Below are positions 8,413-23,429 of a stretch of DNA of 64,000 nucleotides, in pieces. Positions within the stretch are counted from its first letter, which is position 1. Every line of letters begins with the position of its first letter. A model generated the notes under the pieces. The model was given only the letters and a program-made list of their open reading frames with translations, was not told the DNA's origin and ran no database searches. Source of the DNA: Streptomyces erythrochromogenes (GTDB lineage: Bacteria; Actinomycetota; Actinomycetes; Streptomycetales; Streptomycetaceae); the NCBI RefSeq assembly GCF_036170895.1, contig NZ_CP108036.1, forward strand, positions 1,550,001 to 1,614,000, in the 5' to 3' direction. A program made the position numbers and the translations under genes.

Positions 8413-11265
8413 GTGGTGCAGATGGGGGTCACGGGAGGCCAGATCAGCCCCGTACGCTCCCGTGAGCGATTCCTGCTGGGCGAGTCGGTCGAGGGCAGCG
8501 TCCGCGGCCCCATCCTGAACTCGTGGATGCGCAGCCGGATGCTGGGGCTCTCGCCGGAGCAGACGGACCTCCCCTACACGGACGACTTCGATCCCGACAG
8601 CCGGCTCGTCCGGGCGGCCGTGCCCGTCCTCGACCAGCTCCAGACCAGGTTCTCGGGCAGCCAGATGAACATCTCCCTCGCCGACGGGAACGGCACGGTG
8701 TTGCAGCGCCGGTTCGGGGAGCCCGCCCTGGCCGGCCGGCTGGCGCCCATCCAGAGCGTCCCCGGATTCGTCTTCGCCGAGCGCTACGCGGGCACCAACG
8801 GCATCGGACTCGCGCTCGCCGAAAGGCGGCTGTGCCAGGTCTACGGCGCCGAGCACTTCGCCGAGCGGTCCCAGTCGAACGCCTGCTCCGCGACCCCGAT
8901 CCGCGACCAGTTCAGCGGCCACGTCATCGGCGTCCTCTGCTTCGGCTATCCGCGCAGCTACGAGGACCCGGCCCTGCCCGTCCTGGTCCGCCGGGCGGCG
9001 GAGTCCATCGAGCGGCGGCTCATGGAGCAGAGCTCGGCGCGCGAGCGCGCCCTGCTGCGGACCTACCTCGACGCCAGGCTCCGCGCCCACACCGGGGAGG
9101 CCGCCGACGACGGCCAGGTGATCGGCCTGGACGAGCTCACCGACGGCGGGCTCGACCTGCAGGACCAGATGGTCCTCAAGGCGAAGGCCACCGAGCTCAT
9201 CTGCAACCCGCAGCGGGCCGCGGTCGAGGTGTCACTGTCCCACGGCCGGGGGGTCACCCTCCTGAGCAGCCCGGTCACGAGCCTCTCGGGCGTGGAGGGC
9301 GTCGTCGTCGAGGCCGTGCTCACCGGGGACTCCCCTCCGGCGCACCACCTCGCCGCCTCGAAGCCCACCGCCTCCGCCCTCGGCGCCCTGGCCCTCGCCG
9401 CGACGGAGCGCGCCGAATCACTGCCCTGGCACCTCGCCGACACCTCCGCCGCGGGCCGCGCGACCGCCGGCCCGGCCGAAGCGTCCGGTGCGGGCGGCGG
9501 CCGCCCGAGCGACGTCCGGGACGGAGCCCCCGGCACGGCCCGGGGCCTGGTGCTGGTGGGCGAGCCCGAGGTGGGCAAGTACGCCGTCGCCGCACGCCGC
9601 CGCCTGGAGCTGCTGGCCGAGGCCAGCACCCGGATCGGCACCACCCTGGACGTGAGCCGCACCGCCTGGGAACTCGCCGAGACGGCCGTGCCGCGCCTGG
9701 CCGACTACGTCACGGTCGACCTGCCCGGGGCCGTGCTGCGGGGCGAGGAGTCCGCCGACCCGCAGGCCGACCTGCACCGCACGGTGGTCCACGGCATCCG
9801 CGACGACTGCCCCTTCTATCCGGTCGGCCACCGGGTGCGGCTGGACCCCGGCACCCCCCACATGCGCTGCCTCGAGGGCGAGCCCGTCGTGCTGGAGACC
9901 GACCTCCAGGCCACCACTCCGGCCTGGATGGTCCCCGGTCTCGAACACGCCCGGGGAATCCTGGCCCACGACGTGCACTCCATGATCTGCGTCCCGCTGC
10001 TCGCCCGCGGCGTACTGCTCGGCATCGCCACCTTCTACCGCGCGCAGGACCCCGCCCCCTTCGGGGAGGACGACAGCCGACTGGCCCAGGAACTCGCGGC
10101 CCGCGCCGCGCTCTGCATCGACAACGCCCGCCGCTACACCCGCGAGCACACCCTCGCCCTGGCCCTGCAGCGCAGCCTGCTCCCGCGCGGCCTCCCCGCG
10201 CAGGGCGCCGTGGAGGTCGCCCACCACTACCAGCCCGCCGAGTCCGGGGTGGGCGGCGACTGGTTCGACGTCATCCCCCTCTCCGGCACCCGCGTCGCCC
10301 TGCTGGTGGGAGACGTCGTCGGGCACGGGCTGCACGCCGCGGCCACGATGGGCCGGCTGCGCATCGCCGCACGCAACTTCGCCGAGCTGGAACTGGCCCC
10401 GGACGAGCTGCTCACCCACCTGGACAACCTCCTGGTGCGCCTGGACCGGGAGGAGGAGGACGCGAGCGCCACGGGCAGCGACGGCATCGTCGGCGCCACC
10501 TGCCTGTACGCCGTCTACGACCCCACGTCGCAGGTGTGCACGATGGCCCGCGCCGGCCACCCCCCGCCCGCACTGGTCCACCCCGACGGCAGCGTGGCCT
10601 TCCCCGACCTGCCCGCCGGGCCGCCCCTGGGCCTGGGCGGCCTGCCCTTCGAGACCGCCGAGGTCCGGCTCCCCGAGCACAGCACGCTGGTCCTCTACAC
10701 CGACGGCCTCGTCGACGGCCGCCACCGCGACGTCGACGTGTCGCTCGACCAGCTGCGCCGGGCGCTCGCCCACCCGGACCGGAAACCGGAGGACACCTGC
10801 CGGGCCGTCATCGAGGCCGTGGCGCCCGAACACCCCGATGACGACATCGCGCTGCTCGTCGCCCGCACCCGTACCGTGCCCGCCGAGCGGATCGCCACGT
10901 GGGACCTGCCCCCGGACCCGTCCCTCGTCTCCGACATCCGGGGCGCCGCCACCCGGCAGCTCGCCGAGTGGGGGCTGGACGAACTCGCCTTCGCCGCCGA
11001 GCTGATGCTCAGCGAGCTGGTCACGAACGCGGTCCGGTACGGCAGCGAGCCCATCCAGGTACGGCTGATCCACGACCACGACCGCGCCCTGATCTGCGAG
11101 GTCTCCGACGGCAGCAACACCGCCCCGCACCTGCGGCGGGCCGCCACCACGGACGAGGGAGGACGCGGCCTGTTCCTCGTCGCGCAGCTCTCCCAGGCCT
11201 GGGGCGCCCGGTACACCACCCGCGGCAAGGTCATCTGGGCCGAGTGCGCCCTGGACGCGGCATGA
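8413..11265 (+). CDS. Multidomain regulator: GAF - GAF - SpoIIE phosphatase - HATPase (RsbW-like)
   Basis: 950 residues. Residues 1-210 resemble the N-terminal GAF sensor of AcoR-type activators (PGFVFAERYAGTNGIG, then QSNACSATPIRDQ), but no AAA+ or HTH follows. A second GAF occupies about 390-560. A SpoIIE/PP2C domain (about 585-800) has GVGGDWFDVIPL, VGDVVGHG, YTDGLVDG and DDIALLVART. A C-terminal GHKL ATPase (about 825-945) has LSELVTNAVRYG and GGRGLFLV. Fusion of phosphatase and anti-sigma kinase modules suggests control of a sigma-factor partner switch. The start is ambiguous: GTG 8413, GTG 8416 or ATG 8422 follow AGGGGAA at 8406-8412. Confidence 0.87.
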   Translation: MVQMGVTGGQISPVRSRERFLLGESVEGSVRGPILNSWMRSRMLGLSPEQTDLPYTDDFDPDSRLVRAAVPVLDQLQTRFSGSQMNISLADGNGTVLQRRFGEPALAGRLAPIQSVPGFVFAERYAGTNGIGLALAERRLCQVYGAEHFAERSQSNACSATPIRDQFSGHVIGVLCFGYPRSYEDPALPVLVRRAAESIERRLMEQSSARERALLRTYLDARLRAHTGEAADDGQVIGLDELTDGGLDLQDQMVLKAKATELICNPQRAAVEVSLSHGRGVTLLSSPVTSLSGVEGVVVEAVLTGDSPPAHHLAASKPTASALGALALAATERAESLPWHLADTSAAGRATAGPAEASGAGGGRPSDVRDGAPGTARGLVLVGEPEVGKYAVAARRRLELLAEASTRIGTTLDVSRTAWELAETAVPRLADYVTVDLPGAVLRGEESADPQADLHRTVVHGIRDDCPFYPVGHRVRLDPGTPHMRCLEGEPVVLETDLQATTPAWMVPGLEHARGILAHDVHSMICVPLLARGVLLGIATFYRAQDPAPFGEDDSRLAQELAARAALCIDNARRYTREHTLALALQRSLLPRGLPAQGAVEVAHHYQPAESGVGGDWFDVIPLSGTRVALLVGDVVGHGLHAAATMGRLRIAARNFAELELAPDELLTHLDNLLVRLDREEEDASATGSDGIVGATCLYAVYDPTSQVCTMARAGHPPPALVHPDGSVAFPDLPAGPPLGLGGLPFETAEVRLPEHSTLVLYTDGLVDGRHRDVDVSLDQLRRALAHPDRKPEDTCRAVIEAVAPEHPDDDIALLVARTRTVPAERIATWDLPPDPSLVSDIRGAATRQLAEWGLDELAFAAELMLSELVTNAVRYGSEPIQVRLIHDHDRALICEVSDGSNTAPHLRRAATTDEGGRGLFLVAQLSQAWGARYTTRGKVIWAECALDAA

Positions 11266-15166: not shown

Positions 15167-16078
15167 TCAGGCCACCGGGCGGGCCTCGGCGCGTACCGGG
15201 CTCTGCCGCGGGACGTCCGCACGGTCCCGGCGGAAGACGATGTCGGCCATCCGGCGCTCCGGCCCGCGGCGGCGCAGGACCTGGTAGGCGACGAAGGCCG
15301 CCGGGCCGAAGAACACCTGGGCGGGGATGATGCCGGGGGCGTCCCCGGTGGCCGCCGCGATCAGGTGCAGGGCCGCCACGGGCGCCACGGCCCCGAAGAG
15401 CACCACCAGGGCGATCCCGGTCCGCAGCCCCGGCTTCCCGTACGCCTTGTAGGCGGTGGTGGTGAAGAGGGCGTAGGCCAGCAGGTCGCCCATGCCGACG
15501 ACGGCGCCGAGGTCCTCGCCGATGCGCAGGCCCGCGGCCGGTGCGTAGGGGTAGCCCTGGACGGCGTCGGCGAGCTCCTGGGTCAGCGGGACGACCCAGG
15601 CGAAGAAGGCGTCGTAGGCGGCGAGGGCGAGCAGGAACCACGCCACGTTCTTCAGCCGCATGCCGCCCTGGACGTTGAGGTTGGTGGCGGAGACGACGAC
15701 CAGGCCGACGACGCAGCTGTTCGCCACCCAGTACGGCGGCGCGGTCTCGCCGAAGGCCAGGTGCGCGACGAGCACGCTCGCGATCAGCGCGGTGATCAGC
15801 GCCCAGCGCAGCCGGCCGTTGCCGACGAGGGGCTGGTAGCCGACGGACAGTCCGCCGGCGAAGACCAGGGCGAGCACGACCGGGAGGACGACGCCGGGCA
15901 GCGCGAGGTAGACGTACGGCAGCGCGAGGACGAAGCCCATCATCATGAAGATGTCGCGGCCGTTGAAGACGCCGACGGGCGGCCTCGCGGTGCGGACGGC
16001 GCGGAAGTACGCGATGGTGCCGCCGACGACCGCGAGCGCGAGGGCCGCGGTGACCGCGAGCTGGAAGAAGACCGTCAT
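15167..16078 (-). CDS. Nine-helix presenilin/SPP-like GxGD intramembrane aspartyl protease (putative)
   Basis: 303 residues, nine predicted membrane helices (roughly 4-26, 43-60, 62-80, 91-108, 115-132, 145-165, 190-209, 221-241, 249-268). Helix 6 contains AAYDAFFAW with Tyr155-Asp156, helix 7 contains VVGMGDLLAY with Gly195-Met-Gly197-Asp198, and helix 9 contains GIIPAQVFFGP with Pro252-Ala253. These fall where presenilin and signal peptide peptidase carry their two catalytic aspartates (YD and GxGD) and the PAL motif; here PAL reads PAQ. Prepilin peptidases also have GxGD, but lack this nine-helix layout. The start overlaps the ligase stop (ATGA). The family assignment is mine from motifs and topology; the substrate is inferred to be the adjacent 29-residue peptide. 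Confidence 0.7.
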   Translation of the reverse strand: MTVFFQLAVTAALALAVVGGTIAYFRAVRTARPPVGVFNGRDIFMMMGFVLALPYVYLALPGVVLPVVLALVFAGGLSVGYQPLVGNGRLRWALITALIASVLVAHLAFGETAPPYWVANSCVVGLVVVSATNLNVQGGMRLKNVAWFLLALAAYDAFFAWVVPLTQELADAVQGYPYAPAAGLRIGEDLGAVVGMGDLLAYALFTTTAYKAYGKPGLRTGIALVVLFGAVAPVAALHLIAAATGDAPGIIPAQVFFGPAAFVAYQVLRRRGPERRMADIVFRRDRADVPRQSPVRAEARPVA

Positions 16079-17487
16079 GCGTGGCTCCGGGTGAAGGTGT
16101 GCTCCAACAGGTCACAGCGGAGGGGGAAGCGGCGTGCGGCGTCCTCGTCGTCCAGCGGCAGGACGGTGACGCGCGCGTCGATGCCGCGGGCCAGCAGCCG
16201 CTCGGTCACCCCGGCCGTGGTCGCGGTCCGCGAGGCGACCTCCACGTGGAGGCGGCCGTCGGCCGCGACCTCGGCCCGGTGGCGCAGCGGCCACGGCATG
16301 CCCGCAGTGCCGTCCAGGGCCTCCACGACGTCGCGCGGCGTGACGACCGAGGCGGCGGTGCGCAGCAGGGTGCCCGCCTTGCCGAGGATCTGCGAGACGG
16401 CGGGTACGGCGGCCAGCTCGCAGTCCGGTTCGCCCTCCAGGGTGCGCACGACGTCGCCGGTGTTGTAGCGCAGCACCGGCATGCATTCCCGGTAGGGGTA
16501 GTACGGCGTGACGGTCAGTTCCCCGAGCTGTCCGGGGGCGACGGGCTCGCCCGTGTCCAGGTCGAGCACCTCGGTGTAGCCCATGTTGGGGTCGATGTGG
16601 AGGTGGTGGCGGCTGCAGGTGCGGCCGCCGACCGGCAGCAGTTCGGTCATGCCGAAGTTGTCGCCGACGGTCTCGGCACCGAAGGTCTCGCGCAGGGCCT
16701 GGACGAAGGCCGGCGACACGATCTCGCCGCCCGCGTAGATCGACCGGAGGCCGAAGTCGTCGGGCCCGTATCCGCGCCGGCGGGCCGCGGTGAGCATCCG
16801 GGCCAGGTAGCTGGGGTTGCCGGTGAGCAGGGTGGGGCGGGTGCCGTTGCCGCCGAGCAGGTGCTCGACCGACTCCTCGGGCGGGACCTGGCCGACCACG
16901 TGGCAGGAGGCGCCGACCAGTCGGCAGACCTCGACGTCCTCCTGTACGGCGGCCGTCGCCCGGGAGCTGAGGTTGATCTGCATCCGGTCGCCGGGGCGGA
17001 TGTCGCCGCGCAGCACCACGGACAGGGCGATCAGTGCCGGCCAGAGCTCCATCTCGTAGCGGGAGAGCCACATCTGCACGGGACGGCCGGTGGTGCCGGT
17101 CGTCTGGGTCGCGAGGTAGGGGGTGCTGCACAGGAAGTCGGCGGGGCGCGCGATCAGGTCGGCCTTGCGGGTCACCGGGATCCGGGTGAGCGTCTCGGTG
17201 GTCAGGCCGTCGAGGTCGATGCCGGCGAGCCGCTCCCGGTAGAAGGGCGAGCGCTTGGCGAGTCTGCGCACGGTCCGCTGGAGCGCGCGGTTCTGCAGGT
17301 CGCGCCGCTCGTCCGGGTCGGCGAACGGTCCGTCGGCCAGTTCGTCGACGTCGTCGCCGAGTGAGCCGAACTCCTCGAGCGTGGCGAGGGCGTCGGCGAC
17401 CAGCCGCTCCACGGTCCGTACGTTCAGCTTCCGGCCGAACACCATGGCCATCGCCACCCGGACCTGCCGGACACCGGTCTCCAGCAC
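16075..17487 (-). CDS. PaaK/F390-synthetase-like adenylate-forming enzyme
   Basis: 470 residues, ANL superfamily, PaaK-like branch. The N-terminus has the family pattern LAKRSPFYRERLAGIDLDGL (about 76-95). The ATP loop is TTGTTGRPV (129-137), followed by NFGMTE (278-282 region) and YNTGDVVR (341-348). The C-terminal lid domain is short and divergent: ILGKAGTLLRTAASVVTP replaces the usual GRxDDxxxxxG region. Such enzymes activate a carboxylate as acyl-AMP and often pass it to a thiol. GTG at 17487 has a perfect AGGAGG five bases upstream. It is second in the operon between the peptide and protease genes. Inferred role: activating a carboxylate, perhaps the peptide C-terminus or a group attached to it. 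Confidence 0.8.
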   Translation of the reverse strand: MLETGVRQVRVAMAMVFGRKLNVRTVERLVADALATLEEFGSLGDDVDELADGPFADPDERRDLQNRALQRTVRRLAKRSPFYRERLAGIDLDGLTTETLTRIPVTRKADLIARPADFLCSTPYLATQTTGTTGRPVQMWLSRYEMELWPALIALSVVLRGDIRPGDRMQINLSSRATAAVQEDVEVCRLVGASCHVVGQVPPEESVEHLLGGNGTRPTLLTGNPSYLARMLTAARRRGYGPDDFGLRSIYAGGEIVSPAFVQALRETFGAETVGDNFGMTELLPVGGRTCSRHHLHIDPNMGYTEVLDLDTGEPVAPGQLGELTVTPYYPYRECMPVLRYNTGDVVRTLEGEPDCELAAVPAVSQILGKAGTLLRTAASVVTPRDVVEALDGTAGMPWPLRHRAEVAADGRLHVEVASRTATTAGVTERLLARGIDARVTVLPLDDEDAARRFPLRCDLLEHTFTRSHA

Positions 17488-17507
17488 TCGTGCCTCCTAA
17501 GGCGTGA

Positions 17508-17543
17508 AGAAAAGGGGTGGGGGCGGCACGCCGCCCCCACCCC
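17508..17543 (-). terminator. Strong hairpin plus T-tract between peptide and ligase genes (terminator/attenuator)
   Basis: On the minus strand a 13-14 bp G+C stem (17530-17543 pairing with 17514-17527) with a loop of about four bases is followed directly by TTTTCTTC. This is a textbook intrinsic terminator, rare in such a GC-rich genome. It lies after the peptide stop (17555) and before the ligase ribosome site (17497). It should end most transcripts after the peptide gene while allowing some read-through. Confidence 0.85.
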
Positions 17544-17554
17544 CCGAATCTGCG

Positions 17555-17644
17555 TCAGCTGGCAGAACAAGAACCGAAGAAGACGGCCGTCATGGCGCCC
17601 ATGACGTACTTGAACTGCTTGGCGCTGGTCTTGATCGCGCTCAT
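17555..17644 (-). CDS. 29-residue hydrophobic peptide, probable precursor of a processed product
   Basis: The peptide begins MSAIKTSAKQFKY and ends MTAVFFGSCSAS. It has a basic, Lys-containing N-terminal half (Lys5, Lys9, Lys12) and a hydrophobic stretch (about 13-24) that could enter a membrane, then Gly-Ser-Cys-Ser-Ala-Ser with a single Cys26. ATG at 17644 is preceded at ideal spacing by AAAAGGAGGAT, one of the strongest ribosome sites in the window. It is first in a three-gene minus-strand operon with an adenylating enzyme and a GxGD membrane protease, and is cut off from them by a terminator-like hairpin, an arrangement typical of precursor peptides. I recognise no known peptide family. 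With a single Cys and no lanthionine, radical-SAM or YcaO enzyme nearby, it is not an obvious known RiPP class. Confidence 0.78.
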   Translation of the reverse strand: MSAIKTSAKQFKYVMGAMTAVFFGSCSAS

Positions 17645-17761
17645 CGGATCCTCCTTTTGTCGCTCCTGGCGGACGGGCGTTCCGTGCCCCGCGAGGGGCC
17701 GGTCCGCTCGTCCCTGGGTGACAACACCCTGGCGCGATCGAGGTGTTGCGGGCAATGATCG

Positions 17762-17778
17762 GGTCCGTTCAACGGACC
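17762..17778. promoter_or_regulatory. Perfect 17-bp palindrome, probable operator between peptide and IclR-type genes
   Basis: GGTCCGTT-C-AACGGACC is a perfect palindrome with one central base, in the 241-bp space between the divergent peptide and IclR-type regulator genes. IclR regulators commonly bind 15-20 bp imperfect palindromes in such positions. Read on the minus strand it contains TTGAAC, which could serve as a -35 element of the peptide promoter, though I find no convincing -10 at 16-19 bp. A second, shorter inverted repeat lies at 17722-17748 (CAACACC / GGTGTTG). Confidence 0.6.
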
Positions 17779-17885
17779 GGCGGAAGCGGAGGGCGGCACC
17801 ACCGTTCTTGCTGATGAGCCGGGACGAACGGGGAGTTACGGGCACCATCCGACCGATGGCGTCCGTGCGAAAGGGGGATCCGCTC

Positions 17886-18689
17886 ATGGCCAGATCCGGC
17901 ACTGAGGGGCGGGGAGTACTGGAGGGCGCGTTCGCGCTGATGGAGGTGCTCGCGCAGGGCGACGAGGTCGGCCTGACCAGGCTGGCGGCGGACGCCGAAC
18001 TGCCGAAGGCCACGGCCCACCGGCTGCTCGGGCAGCTGGTCGCGCTGGGCGCGGTACAGAGCGTTTCGGGCCGCTACAGGCTGGGCCCGAGGACGTTCCG
18101 GCTGGGGCAGGCGTGGCATCCCGCGCGGGCGCTGAGGGCCGCGTCGGCGCGGCCGTTGCGCGAACTCGCCGCCGTCGGCGGTGGCAGGCTGAGTGTCAGT
18201 CTGTCGGTGCCCGAGGCGGGGCACGCCCTGGTGGTCGGGAGCACGCGCAGCGAGGTGGACGACGTGTTCGCGCTGTATCCCGGTGTCGTCCTGCCGGCCG
18301 GGAGCGCGGCCGAGCTGATCCTGACGGCGTCGGCTCCCGAGGCGGGCCCTGCGCAGGGGTGGTCGCGGGCCGCGTGGTCGCGGGAGGCGGCGCGGGCCAG
18401 GGAGCAGGGCATGGCCTTCCAGTACGGGCAGTGCGTGAGCGCGCTGTCGTGCGTGGCGGCGCCGGTGTTCTCCGAGGCGGGGCAGGTGGTGGCCGCCGTG
18501 GCGGCGACCTCGCTGGACGGCAAGCAGATCGCCCTGCTGGGTGAGGCCGCGGTCCGTACGGCGGCGATGGTCAGCGCCAACCTGTCCAGGCTGTCGGCGC
18601 CCGCGGCGCGCCCGCGCCGCGAGTGGGAGCCGGTGCAGGGCCCGGCCGACCGGGCCGCCCGGCACGCCGTGATGGCGCGGCGGCGCTAG
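17886..18689 (+). CDS. IclR-like winged-helix transcriptional regulator
   Basis: 267 residues. The N-terminal domain has the IclR-type winged helix: GVLEGAFALMEVLAQGDEVG, then a recognition helix LPKATAHRLLGQLVALG (about 38-55) and wing GRYRLGPRTFRLG. The C-terminal ~180 residues resemble the IclR effector domain, with AAPVFSEAGQVVAAVAATS near 200-220. ATG at 17886 is preceded by AAAGGGGG at 17869-17876; an upstream ATG at 17856 lacks a ribosome site. It is divergent from the peptide-ligase-protease operon across a palindrome, so it probably controls that operon and itself. The effector is unknown. Confidence 0.82.
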   Translation: MARSGTEGRGVLEGAFALMEVLAQGDEVGLTRLAADAELPKATAHRLLGQLVALGAVQSVSGRYRLGPRTFRLGQAWHPARALRAASARPLRELAAVGGGRLSVSLSVPEAGHALVVGSTRSEVDDVFALYPGVVLPAGSAAELILTASAPEAGPAQGWSRAAWSREAARAREQGMAFQYGQCVSALSCVAAPVFSEAGQVVAAVAATSLDGKQIALLGEAAVRTAAMVSANLSRLSAPAARPRREWEPVQGPADRAARHAVMARRR

Positions 18690-21307: not shown

Positions 21308-21425
21308 CGCGAACGCCGGGCTCCGCCAGGAGCGCCGACGGGGGAGTCCGAAGCGGAAGAGAGCGCTCTCTGAGCCTGCGGGCGCGGACAGCGCCGGTGC
21401 TGGAACAAGGAGGATGGGAGACGTC

Positions 21426-23429
21426 ATGGCGTCCGTAGGGGAAAGACTCAGCCGGGCCCGGGTGCAGGCCTTCATCGGCCGGGAGGAGGAACTCGGGCTC
21501 TTCGGCGAGGCGTTGGCCGGCGATGCGCAGGCTCCGTTCGCGTTCTACGTGTGCGGGCCGGGCGGTATCGGGAAGTCCACGCTGCTGAGGCGGCTGGCCG
21601 ACCACGCCCGCGCGGCGGGCCGACTGCTCGTCGAACTCGACGGCCGGTTCGTCAGCCGGGACCCGATCGATTTCGAGCATGCCGCCGGACCGTTCCTCGA
21701 CGTCCCGGGCACGGTCCTGTTCGTGGACTCCTTCGACCACTGCCAGTGGCTGGAGAGCTGGCTGTGGCACCACTTCCTGCCCCGCGCCGCGGAGGACACC
21801 CTGGTCGTGCTGGCCGGACGGCGCGCTCCGCAGCCCCAGTGGACCGCCGACCCGGCCTGGTCCGGGCTCCTGCGCGTGACCGAACTGGAGCCGTTCTCCG
21901 AGGACCAGGCCCGCAGCCTGCTGGTGGCGGCGCAGATCCGGCCCGAACTGCGCGACCGGGTGCTGCGCTTCGCCGGCGGCAACCCGCTGGCCCTGTCCCT
22001 CGCCGCCGCGGCGGGATCGGCGGGCTGCGCCCGGGAGGAGATCTGGGCCCCGTCGGCGGACGTCCTGCGCACCCTGCTGGCGGGGCTGGTCGGCGAGGTC
22101 CCCACGGCCGCCCACCGCCGCGCCCTGGAGGTGGCGGCCCAGGCGCACTCGACGTCCGAGGAACTGCTGTCCTCCGTACTGCCCGGAGAGGACGCCCACC
22201 TGCTGTTCTCCTGGCTGAGGGACCTGCCCTTCATGGAGTCCACGCACCGGGGTCTCCACCCGCACGACGCCGCCCGCGAGACGCTCGCCGCCGACCTGCG
22301 CTGGCGCGCGCCCAACGCGTTCGAGGCGATCCGGGCGCGCCTGGCGGACGAATACCTGCGCATCCTGCGCGAGGCGCCCGAGGAGCGGGTGTGGACCGTC
22401 ACCGACGAGCTCTTCTACCTGTTCCGGGAGGGCGAGACCCTGTCCCGGCTGCGCACCTGGTCCCGCGACGAGGAGATGCACGACCGTCCGCTGCACCCGG
22501 AGGACATGGACGTCGTCCTGCGGATGGCCGAGGAGACCGAGGGGCCCGCCTCGGCGGAACTGGTCCGCTACTGGGCGCGGCGCCAGCCGCAGGCCTTCAG
22601 CGTCTACCGTCTCGTGAGCACGGGCCGGATCGTCGCCTTCACGGCCCGGCTCGCCCTGCCGGCCCCTCCCGACCCCGAGGACCTCGCCGCCGATCCCGTG
22701 GTCGCGGCCGCGTGGCGGTACACCGCTGCCACCGCCCCGGTGAGCCCCGGCGAGCACATCGGGATCAGCAGGTTCTCGGTCTACCCCGAGCGCTACCAGG
22801 TACCCTCGCGGGTCATCGACCTGAGCAGCTCACGGGCCCAGGCGGAGGCGGCCAGGGCCCGTGGCCGCGCCTTCGGCTTCGCCGTCTTCCAGGACGCCGA
22901 AGCCTGGGCCGAGCGGGTCAAGGGCACCCTGCGCGACACCGGGGAGCGCCCCCGGGTCGGCGAGCACACCTACGGGGTGTTCGGCGTCGACTGGCGCGAG
23001 GTCCCCGTGGAGAGGTGGCTCTTCCACTTCATATCGGCCCCCGAGGTACCGGTCCCCGCCGGGCCGGCGGCCGTCTCGCGCACCGCCTTCGACCAGGCCG
23101 TGCGCGAAGCGCTGGCGCACTGGCGCGACCCGAGCGCCTTCGCCGCCTGCGCCCTGATGCGCACGCGGCTCGCCGCCGACCTCGGGGATCCCGTCGAGGA
23201 GCTGCGCACGCTGCTGCGCCGGACCGTCGACGACCTCGCCCGTGACCCGCGCGGGGTGCGCGCCCGCGAGGCCCTGACGACGGGGTACTTCTCCGGTGTG
23301 CCGACCCAGGAGGGCGCGGCCCGCCGCCTCGGCCTCCCGTACGGCACCTACCGCCGCCATCTGCGCCAGGGCCTGGACCTGCTCTGCGAAGCCCTGTGGG
23401 AACTGGAGCTGCGGGGCCCGCGCCCGTAG
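21426..23429 (+). CDS. ATPase with C-terminal sigma-region-4-like helix-turn-helix
   Basis: 667 residues. The N-terminal ATPase (about 15-250) opens with FIGREEELGLF, has Walker A GPGGIGKST and Walker B TVLFVDSFD, and then LRFAGGNPLALSLAA, the pattern of STAND-type regulators. The middle (about 400-560) has the look of an acetyltransferase-like fold (SRFSVYPERYQ, RARGRAFGFAVFQ). The last 80 residues include TQEGAARRLGLPYGTYRRHL, a sigma-70 region 4-like HTH. ATG 21426 is favoured over ATG 21414 because the latter abuts AGGAGG with no spacing. Probably a signal-responsive transcription regulator; its target is unknown. Confidence 0.72.
   Translation: MASVGERLSRARVQAFIGREEELGLFGEALAGDAQAPFAFYVCGPGGIGKSTLLRRLADHARAAGRLLVELDGRFVSRDPIDFEHAAGPFLDVPGTVLFVDSFDHCQWLESWLWHHFLPRAAEDTLVVLAGRRAPQPQWTADPAWSGLLRVTELEPFSEDQARSLLVAAQIRPELRDRVLRFAGGNPLALSLAAAAGSAGCAREEIWAPSADVLRTLLAGLVGEVPTAAHRRALEVAAQAHSTSEELLSSVLPGEDAHLLFSWLRDLPFMESTHRGLHPHDAARETLAADLRWRAPNAFEAIRARLADEYLRILREAPEERVWTVTDELFYLFREGETLSRLRTWSRDEEMHDRPLHPEDMDVVLRMAEETEGPASAELVRYWARRQPQAFSVYRLVSTGRIVAFTARLALPAPPDPEDLAADPVVAAAWRYTAATAPVSPGEHIGISRFSVYPERYQVPSRVIDLSSSRAQAEAARARGRAFGFAVFQDAEAWAERVKGTLRDTGERPRVGEHTYGVFGVDWREVPVERWLFHFISAPEVPVPAGPAAVSRTAFDQAVREALAHWRDPSAFAACALMRTRLAADLGDPVEELRTLLRRTVDDLARDPRGVRAREALTTGYFSGVPTQEGAARRLGLPYGTYRRHLRQGLDLLCEALWELELRGPRP

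What the first reader, a model, noticed from the sequence alone, without database searches (positions are those of the whole stretch)
15167..18689. Candidate peptide-maturation system: short hydrophobic peptide + adenylating enzyme + GxGD intramembrane protease + divergent IclR-type regulator
Seen: a 29-codon gene with a near-perfect ribosome site, a terminator-like hairpin, a PaaK-like adenylate-forming enzyme, a membrane protein with YD, GxGD and PA motifs in nine helices, and a divergent IclR-type gene across a perfect palindrome. Known: presenilin/SPP enzymes cut peptides within membrane helices, ANL enzymes activate carboxylates, and precursor-peptide genes are often followed by attenuators. 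Inference: the peptide is inserted in the membrane, cut by the protease and activated or acylated by the ligase to yield a secreted signal or antibiotic-like product. I know of no described system with this set.
Basis: partly seen in the sequence, partly recalled or inferred. Interest (0 to 1): 0.92.

Follow-up and report, generated by a model that had tools for sequence, protein, structure and literature searches.

The report
Presenilin-type peptide-processing cassette in bacteria
A tiny membrane peptide, an ATP-using ligase and a relative of the Alzheimer's protease presenilin sit together as a three-gene set in Streptomyces and other soil bacteria, which suggests an undescribed way of making a small peptide product such as a signal.

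The parts
17555..17644 (-). small precursor-like peptide gene, 29 aa (MSAIKTSAKQFKYVMGAMTAVFFGSCSAS)
   Evidence: conserved; one match in the window's genome, E 8.8e-14 (its own sequence is in the profile)
17650..17656 (-). Shine-Dalgarno sequence AAGGAGG of the peptide gene, 5 nt before the ATG
17514..17543 (-). stem-loop between peptide gene and ligase gene (terminator-like; TTTTCTTC follows)
   Evidence: a stem of >=9 pairs in 30 of 41 loci against 105 of 820 shuffles
16075..17487 (-). PaaK-like adenylate-forming ligase, 470 aa, with an N-terminal extension (about 1-56) and a C-terminal RxDLxExxF motif
15167..16078 (-). presenilin/SPP-fold membrane protein, 303 aa, probable intramembrane aspartyl protease; start overlaps the ligase stop by 4 nt
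15611..15616 (-). YD motif (residues 155-156), probable first catalytic aspartate
   Evidence: 63 of 63, and 16 of 16 across both subfamilies
15485..15496 (-). GxGD motif (residues 195-198), probable second catalytic aspartate
   Evidence: 63 of 63, and 16 of 16 across both subfamilies
15317..15325 (-). PAQ motif (residues 252-254), the PAL-like element before helix 9
   Evidence: the proline is invariant in both subfamilies, PAQ is not (PLL or similar in subfamily II)
17762..17778 (.). 17-bp palindrome, possible operator of the IclR-type regulator
   Evidence: present in 13 of 14 Streptomyces upstream regions (perfect in 6, one mismatch in 6, two in L073); missing in L010, which has no IclR match
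17886..18689 (+). divergent IclR-type regulator, 267 aa; beside nearer Streptomyces cassettes only

Best explanation
This is a three-gene peptide-maturation cassette. Shown: the peptide, ligase and membrane-protein genes form one conserved, co-inherited set, and the membrane protein has the presenilin/SPP fold with YD, GxGD and proline motifs. Inferred: the 22-31-residue peptide inserts in the membrane with its charged N-terminus in the cytoplasm and its C-terminal tail outside. The protease cuts it within the helix, as signal peptide peptidase does with type II substrates (recalled). The short variable C-terminal piece is the product, most likely a cell-to-cell signal, comparable with the streptococcal SHP and enterococcal pheromone systems in which the membrane metalloprotease Eep is implicated. 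The ligase, which recognises the peptide's conserved part, activates a carboxylate to finish the product (cyclising, esterifying or capping it). In near Streptomyces an IclR regulator controls the operon. The hairpin after the peptide gene keeps the peptide in excess over the enzymes.
Against: No cut, modified or secreted peptide has been seen, and no tool here tests activity. No exporter, immunity gene or receptor was found conserved beside the cassette (simple gene caller). The ligase has no conserved lysine in its C-terminal domain, so its first half-reaction is in doubt; its place would be the cytoplasm, while the proposed tail lies outside. Tails share no residue across subfamilies, which also fits a tail that does not matter. 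Sequence profiles hardly support presenilin: 5 of 63 members hit PF01080, best E 0.019, while unrelated-looking models do as well or better (DUF3188 15 members, best 0.021; DUF6234 one member, 0.0027), and nothing matches in PDB sequences. The hairpin is weak in L015, and z is above -2 in L016, L021, L062, L067, L068 and L072; few hairpins are followed by a T run.
Confidence: 0.62

Rival explanations
1. Acylated-peptide variant: the ligase adenylates a small external acid (aryl or fatty acid, as PaaK relatives do) and the acyl group is put on the peptide or on its fragment; the protease then trims or releases the conjugate.
For: Solved relatives include PaaK1 with phenylacetyl adenylate, NatL2 with salicylic acid and ClxA with 3-amino-4-hydroxybenzoic acid. 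The peptide keeps an invariant tyrosine after a K/R that could be modified.
Against: No source of a special acid was found conserved nearby. The N-terminal extension and the co-occurrence with the peptide point to the peptide itself as substrate.
Confidence: 0.18
2. Regulatory-subunit reading: the peptide is not a precursor but a small membrane subunit that assembles with and controls the protease and ligase, whose real substrate is another membrane protein or metabolite.
For: The peptide core, not the tail, is the conserved part; small membrane proteins often act as subunits (recalled).
Against: The layout (strong ribosome site, hairpin before the enzyme genes) and the SPP-like orientation fit a substrate better. 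In Streptomyces two tail residues are held fixed among varying ones.
Confidence: 0.13
3. Toxin-like peptide: a short hydrophobic peptide that harms membranes, with the protease (and ligase) destroying or disarming it.
For: Size and hydrophobicity resemble type I toxin peptides (recalled).
Against: The three genes are co-directional with the peptide first; a detoxifier would not need an adenylating enzyme. An antisense RNA was not searched for, and there are no toxicity data.
Confidence: 0.05
4. Leader-peptide attenuator: the small ORF only regulates the downstream genes by its translation and has no product.
For: A stem-loop follows the ORF in most loci.
Against: The amino-acid sequence is conserved between phyla, with dN below dS, and no run of one amino acid is seen in the peptides.
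Confidence: 0.02

Closest known systems
Presenilin / signal peptide peptidase proteases (MEROPS A22; SPPL2a, PSEN1, archaeal PSH)
   Same: Nine-helix fold with YD in helix 6, GxGD at helix 7 and a proline motif before helix 9 of the model; peptide orientation as for SPP substrates (recalled)
   Different: Bacterial; about 10-15% identity; no match above Pfam or PDB-sequence thresholds; PAQ or PLL-like instead of PAL; a 22-31-aa peptide encoded beside it; Pfam's SPP family has no match in 198 Actinomycetota genomes
SHP/Rgg and enterococcal pheromone systems with Eep
   Same: Short hydrophobic precursor; mature SHP is its C-terminal part; a membrane protease is implicated (passages of PMC3679016 and PMC7117660); a putative terminator lies behind the prgQ region
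   Different: Eep is a metalloproteinase; mature SHPs start at an acidic residue; no ligase is mentioned in the passages seen; regulators are Rgg/PrgX, not IclR
TMcin RiPPs (TmcA/TmcP)
   Same: Membrane-inserted precursor peptide cut by an intramembrane protease of the same cluster (abstract, first part and discussion of PMC13252029)
   Different: TmcP is S2P-like (DUF3267); product keeps its helix and a disulfide; ABC transporter, DsbA-like and escort proteins; no adenylating enzyme in the parts read
PaaK family of ANL enzymes (PaaK1, NatL2, AjiA1, ClxA; BagE/FevW)
   Same: Fold, P-loop TTGxxGxP, T-E and YxTxD motifs
   Different: N-terminal extension of about 56 residues, no conserved C-terminal lysine, invariant RxDLxExxF; far below the NCBIfam PaaK and BagE cut-offs

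Membership tests
Presenilin/SPP (A22) proteases | YD and GxGD aspartate motifs in core helices | tested here: met
   63 of 63; 16 of 16 across both subfamilies (which held 9 of the 11 subfamily II proteins)
Presenilin/SPP (A22) proteases | nine-helix presenilin fold | tested here: met
Presenilin/SPP (A22) proteases | PAL motif at helix 9 | tested here: inconclusive
   proline invariant but PAQ (subfamily I) or PLL-like (II) instead of PAL
Presenilin/SPP (A22) proteases | sequence match above the curated family threshold (PF01080, PF06550) | tested here: not met
   none for the window protein; 5 of 63 members hit PF01080 weakly, best E 0.019, no better than other weak hits; PF06550 0 of 198 genomes including this one. 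Hence presenilin-like by fold and motifs, not a member of these Pfam families
Presenilin/SPP (A22) proteases | cuts peptide bonds inside the membrane | not testable with these tools
   needs an enzyme assay
Type IV prepilin peptidases (A24, also GxGD) | prepilin-peptidase fold | tested here: inconclusive
   none seen in the rows shown, which does not exclude it; motif order YD, GxGD, P fits A22
ANL / PaaK-like ligases | AMP-binding domain and P-loop | tested here: met
   PF00501 46.3 bits, cut-off 29.9; TTGxxGxP invariant 40 of 40; PaaK1 fold E 5e-23. The one subfamily II ligase scanned, L058, falls just under the cut-off: 28.4 bits
ANL / PaaK-like ligases | catalytic lysine in the C-terminal domain (A10 motif, recalled) | tested here: not met
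   beyond residue 360 the only column with lysine in 30% or more of 40 ligases is K370 (29 of 40), which I place before the C-terminal domain; R457, D459, E462, F465 are invariant
RiPPs | ribosomal precursor peptide encoded with dedicated enzymes | tested here: met
   41 of 41 testable loci and co-occurrence in genome samples; that it is a precursor is inferred
RiPPs | post-translational modification of the peptide | not testable with these tools
   needs mass spectrometry
SHP/Eep-type pheromones | metalloprotease (Eep) and Rgg-type receptor | tested here: not met
   the cassette's protein has GxGD and the presenilin fold; the regulator beside it is IclR-type. Eep or Rgg homologues elsewhere in the genome were not searched for
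IclR regulators | HTH_IclR and IclR_C domains | tested here: met
   44.3 and 28.2 bits against cut-offs 22 and 24

The most novel reading that the evidence does not exclude
Bacteria own a presenilin-clan protease whose dedicated job is to release a short peptide from a 22-31-residue membrane precursor, and an ANL ligase without the usual C-terminal lysine finishes it through its new or native C-terminus. This would be a separate class of ribosomal peptide product, probably a hormone-like signal, and a presenilin-type enzyme with its natural substrate encoded next to it.
Probability: 0.4. Interest if true: 0.94.

Novelty: new variant of a known kind. Interest (0 to 1): 0.86.

Why it matters
Presenilin and SPP are studied through eukaryotic enzymes or an archaeal homologue whose physiological substrates were called unknown in 2010 (passage of PMC2947513). 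A bacterial set in which enzyme and probable substrate are adjacent genes of about 300 and 29 codons would give a simple, genetically tractable pair for cleavage-site, inhibitor and processivity work. It would also add a peptide-maturation route in antibiotic-producing genera that homology-based cluster mining would probably miss, because the protease matched no family model above threshold here and the peptide is very short.

Tried and rejected
Known-family membership of the membrane protein by sequence: Pfam, NCBIfam and PDB sequences gave nothing above threshold; only the fold comparison placed it. Other conserved neighbours: clustering of genes called by my own simple caller in 31 loci found the ligase in 30 and the membrane protein in 28. 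The only further neighbour shared by many loci that I looked into is a cupredoxin-like gene in 9. The caller fails on the lower-GC locus L016 and missed known genes elsewhere, so absences mean little; other clusters of 3-6 loci were not inspected. Plasmids hold one partial relative, in an Embleya record. Papers: searches (the held open-access library only; listings and the passages named in this report) showed no description of a bacterial presenilin-type protease or of this gene set; subscription papers were not covered, and one relevant paper was not held.

Rejected: chance small ORF, leader-peptide attenuator, and IclR as part of the core system. Rows dropped before counts: L006 (contig begins 125 nt before the ligase, peptide not testable); L064 (truncated remnant, no ligase); loci judged the same by equal contig lengths (L069, L070, L071, L076-L079, L083); L009 from the ligase alignment only (its ligase frame is broken: two pieces, 294 aa; not mended); two of 11 subfamily II membrane proteins (L065, L068) from alignment A4. 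In one search the matches from E 0.03 upward (11 genomes without the cassette, and a second match in G959) were treated as noise; all cover only 13-17 of 29 positions. The peptide ORFs were picked by eye from the ORFs with a ribosome-site-like motif listed. In the genome search only a few best candidates per genome were scored (5, 7 or 9), so misses are possible.
Full report
What is there. On the minus strand of an 8.6-Mb genome (genus Streptomyces, inferred from 97% ligase identity to named Streptomyces) lie, in order: a 29-codon gene (17555-17644) behind a perfect AAGGAGG; a hairpin (17514-17543); a 470-residue PaaK-like ligase (16075-17487); and a 303-residue membrane protein (15167-16078) whose start overlaps the ligase stop by 4 nt. 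A divergent IclR-type gene (17886-18689) reads away across a 17-bp palindrome at 17762-17778.

Is the small gene real? Yes. A scan of named genomes with the ligase gave 23 loci. In 22 of them a 27-31-codon ORF with a ribosome site lies upstream of the ligase; in the 23rd, L006, the contig starts 125 nt before the ligase. The membrane protein follows in 23 of 23 (cut by the contig end in L023). Scans with the membrane-protein profile then gave a second, diverged subfamily (membrane protein about 30%, ligase 37-42% identical in the best segments). All 11 of its ligase-bearing loci again have a 22-26-codon ORF of the same kind. After removing duplicates, 41 of 41 testable loci, the window included, have the trio. 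Peptide codons vary mostly at silent sites: dN 0.03-0.16 against dS 0.36-0.68 in seven Streptomyces pairs. The peptide profile finds one place in the window's genome, E 8.8e-14.

Do the three genes belong together? Two calls drew 246 genomes of the window's genus, with the same handles as far as listed. The membrane-protein profile matched 16; the peptide profile matched 15 at E<=1e-4, and further matches start at 0.03 and cover 13-17 of 29 positions. The 15 are exactly the genomes with an intact membrane-protein gene; the 16th, G819, holds a truncated remnant without ligase and has no peptide. The profile contains the peptides of 5 of these 15 genomes, so the other 10, and the absence elsewhere, carry the weight. 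With the ligase profile, 42 of 209 genomes match at E<=1e-20; 14 matches are full-length (E<=1.1e-101), all in cassette genomes, and the next is at 2.8e-32 and begins at profile position 53. The set is patchy: 1 of 396 genomes in a phylum sample and 1 of 394 in a class sample (in both, only the window's own), 12 of 250 in a sample of the Nonomuraea family, 2 of 47 in the order of the Ktedonobacteria locus L019 (both known beforehand).

What is the ligase? Its nearest solved relatives are PaaK-type enzymes (4r1l E 5e-33; PaaK1 fold E 5e-23; own model pLDDT 76). TTGxxGxP and the T-E and YxTxD motifs are invariant in 40 of 40. But no lysine is conserved in the C-terminal domain, where ANL enzymes carry their adenylation lysine (recalled), and the window's protein has none after K370; RxDLxExxF is invariant instead. 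A conserved stretch of about 56 residues precedes the PaaK-like part. These mark a specialised subfamily, perhaps peptide-binding (inference).

Peptide anatomy. In 41 of 41: at least 2 lysine/arginine and no acidic residue up to a conserved [KR]Y; an F (L in L016) exactly ten residues later; then a tail of 4-8 residues. No K/R lies beyond the [KR]Y; D/E occurs there in 3 of 41. There are 24 distinct cores and 33 distinct tails. By the positive-inside rule the tail faces out, the orientation of SPP substrates (both recalled). In 14 nearer Streptomyces, Cys26 and the C-terminal Ser29 are fixed, the serine by two codon families, while the other tail positions change. This suggests that the tail is selected and is the likelier product, but outside Streptomyces the cysteine is often missing.

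Regulation. A stem-loop between peptide and ligase genes recurs: stems of >=9 pairs in 30 of 41 against 105 of 820 shuffles, z below -2 in 35 of 41. It is weak in L015, and z is above -2 in L016, L021, L062, L067, L068 and L072; few hairpins are followed by a T run, so termination is plausible but not general. The palindrome is kept in 13 of 14 Streptomyces upstream regions, perfect in 6; the exception, L010, has no IclR match. Close IclR matches adjoin 10 of the 23 loci; weak ones in L020 and L021 lie thousands of bases away.

How it probably works. Shown: gene set, fold, motifs, co-inheritance. Inferred: insertion, cleavage by the protease, release of the C-terminal piece, finishing by the ligase, export and sensing. 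The nearest working analogies are SHP and enterococcal pheromone precursors, for which Eep is implicated (passages; for SHP the paper says a direct role is not established), and TMcins, cut by an S2P-like protease (abstract, first part and discussion). In what I read of them none uses an aspartyl protease or an adenylating ligase. Rivals are an acylated peptide, a regulatory subunit and, less likely, a toxin or an attenuator.

Verdict. It is a new variant of a known kind (membrane-precursor peptide maturation) built on a protease fold that my searches did not find described in bacteria (open-access library only).

Noticed in passing
L013, L014, L015, L017, L018, L076, L077, L079, L080, upstream of the peptide gene: A cupredoxin-like gene (C-x-x-H-P-x-M-like copper ligands in most, hydrophobic N-terminus) sits on the same strand before the peptide in 9 loci outside Streptomyces (PF00127 23.0 bits against cut-off 21.2 for the L017 protein, no hit for the L013 protein). 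It could be a fourth cassette member.
   Followed up: partly
window 16075-17487 (ligase), residues 371-470: The ligase subfamily has no conserved C-terminal lysine and an invariant RxDLxExxF, 40 of 40.
   Followed up: partly
G1146: loci L081 and L067: One genome carries both subfamilies of the cassette at separate places, which suggests two distinct products.
   Followed up: no
L057-L063, L066, L067 membrane proteins, C-terminal end: Subfamily II proteins carry an extra C-terminal stretch with a W-x-x-x-x-x-G-x-x-x-G-x-G-like pattern; no Pfam match in the two scanned.
   Followed up: no
L064 (genome G819): Remnant of a subfamily II membrane protein without ligase or peptide: decay of the whole cassette.
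   Followed up: partly
window 8413-11265 and 21414-23429: A large GAF-SpoIIE-HATPase regulator and an AAA/NACHT-like protein (its matches are below the Pfam cut-offs) lie in the flanks; relatives of the latter occur beside 3 of the 23 loci, all near Streptomyces.
   Followed up: no
NZ_CP108777.1 (Embleya, 3.1 Mb record listed as plasmid), 884136-884636: A partial relative of the protease (60.7% identity over 55% of the query) with no annotated gene listed under it.
   Followed up: no
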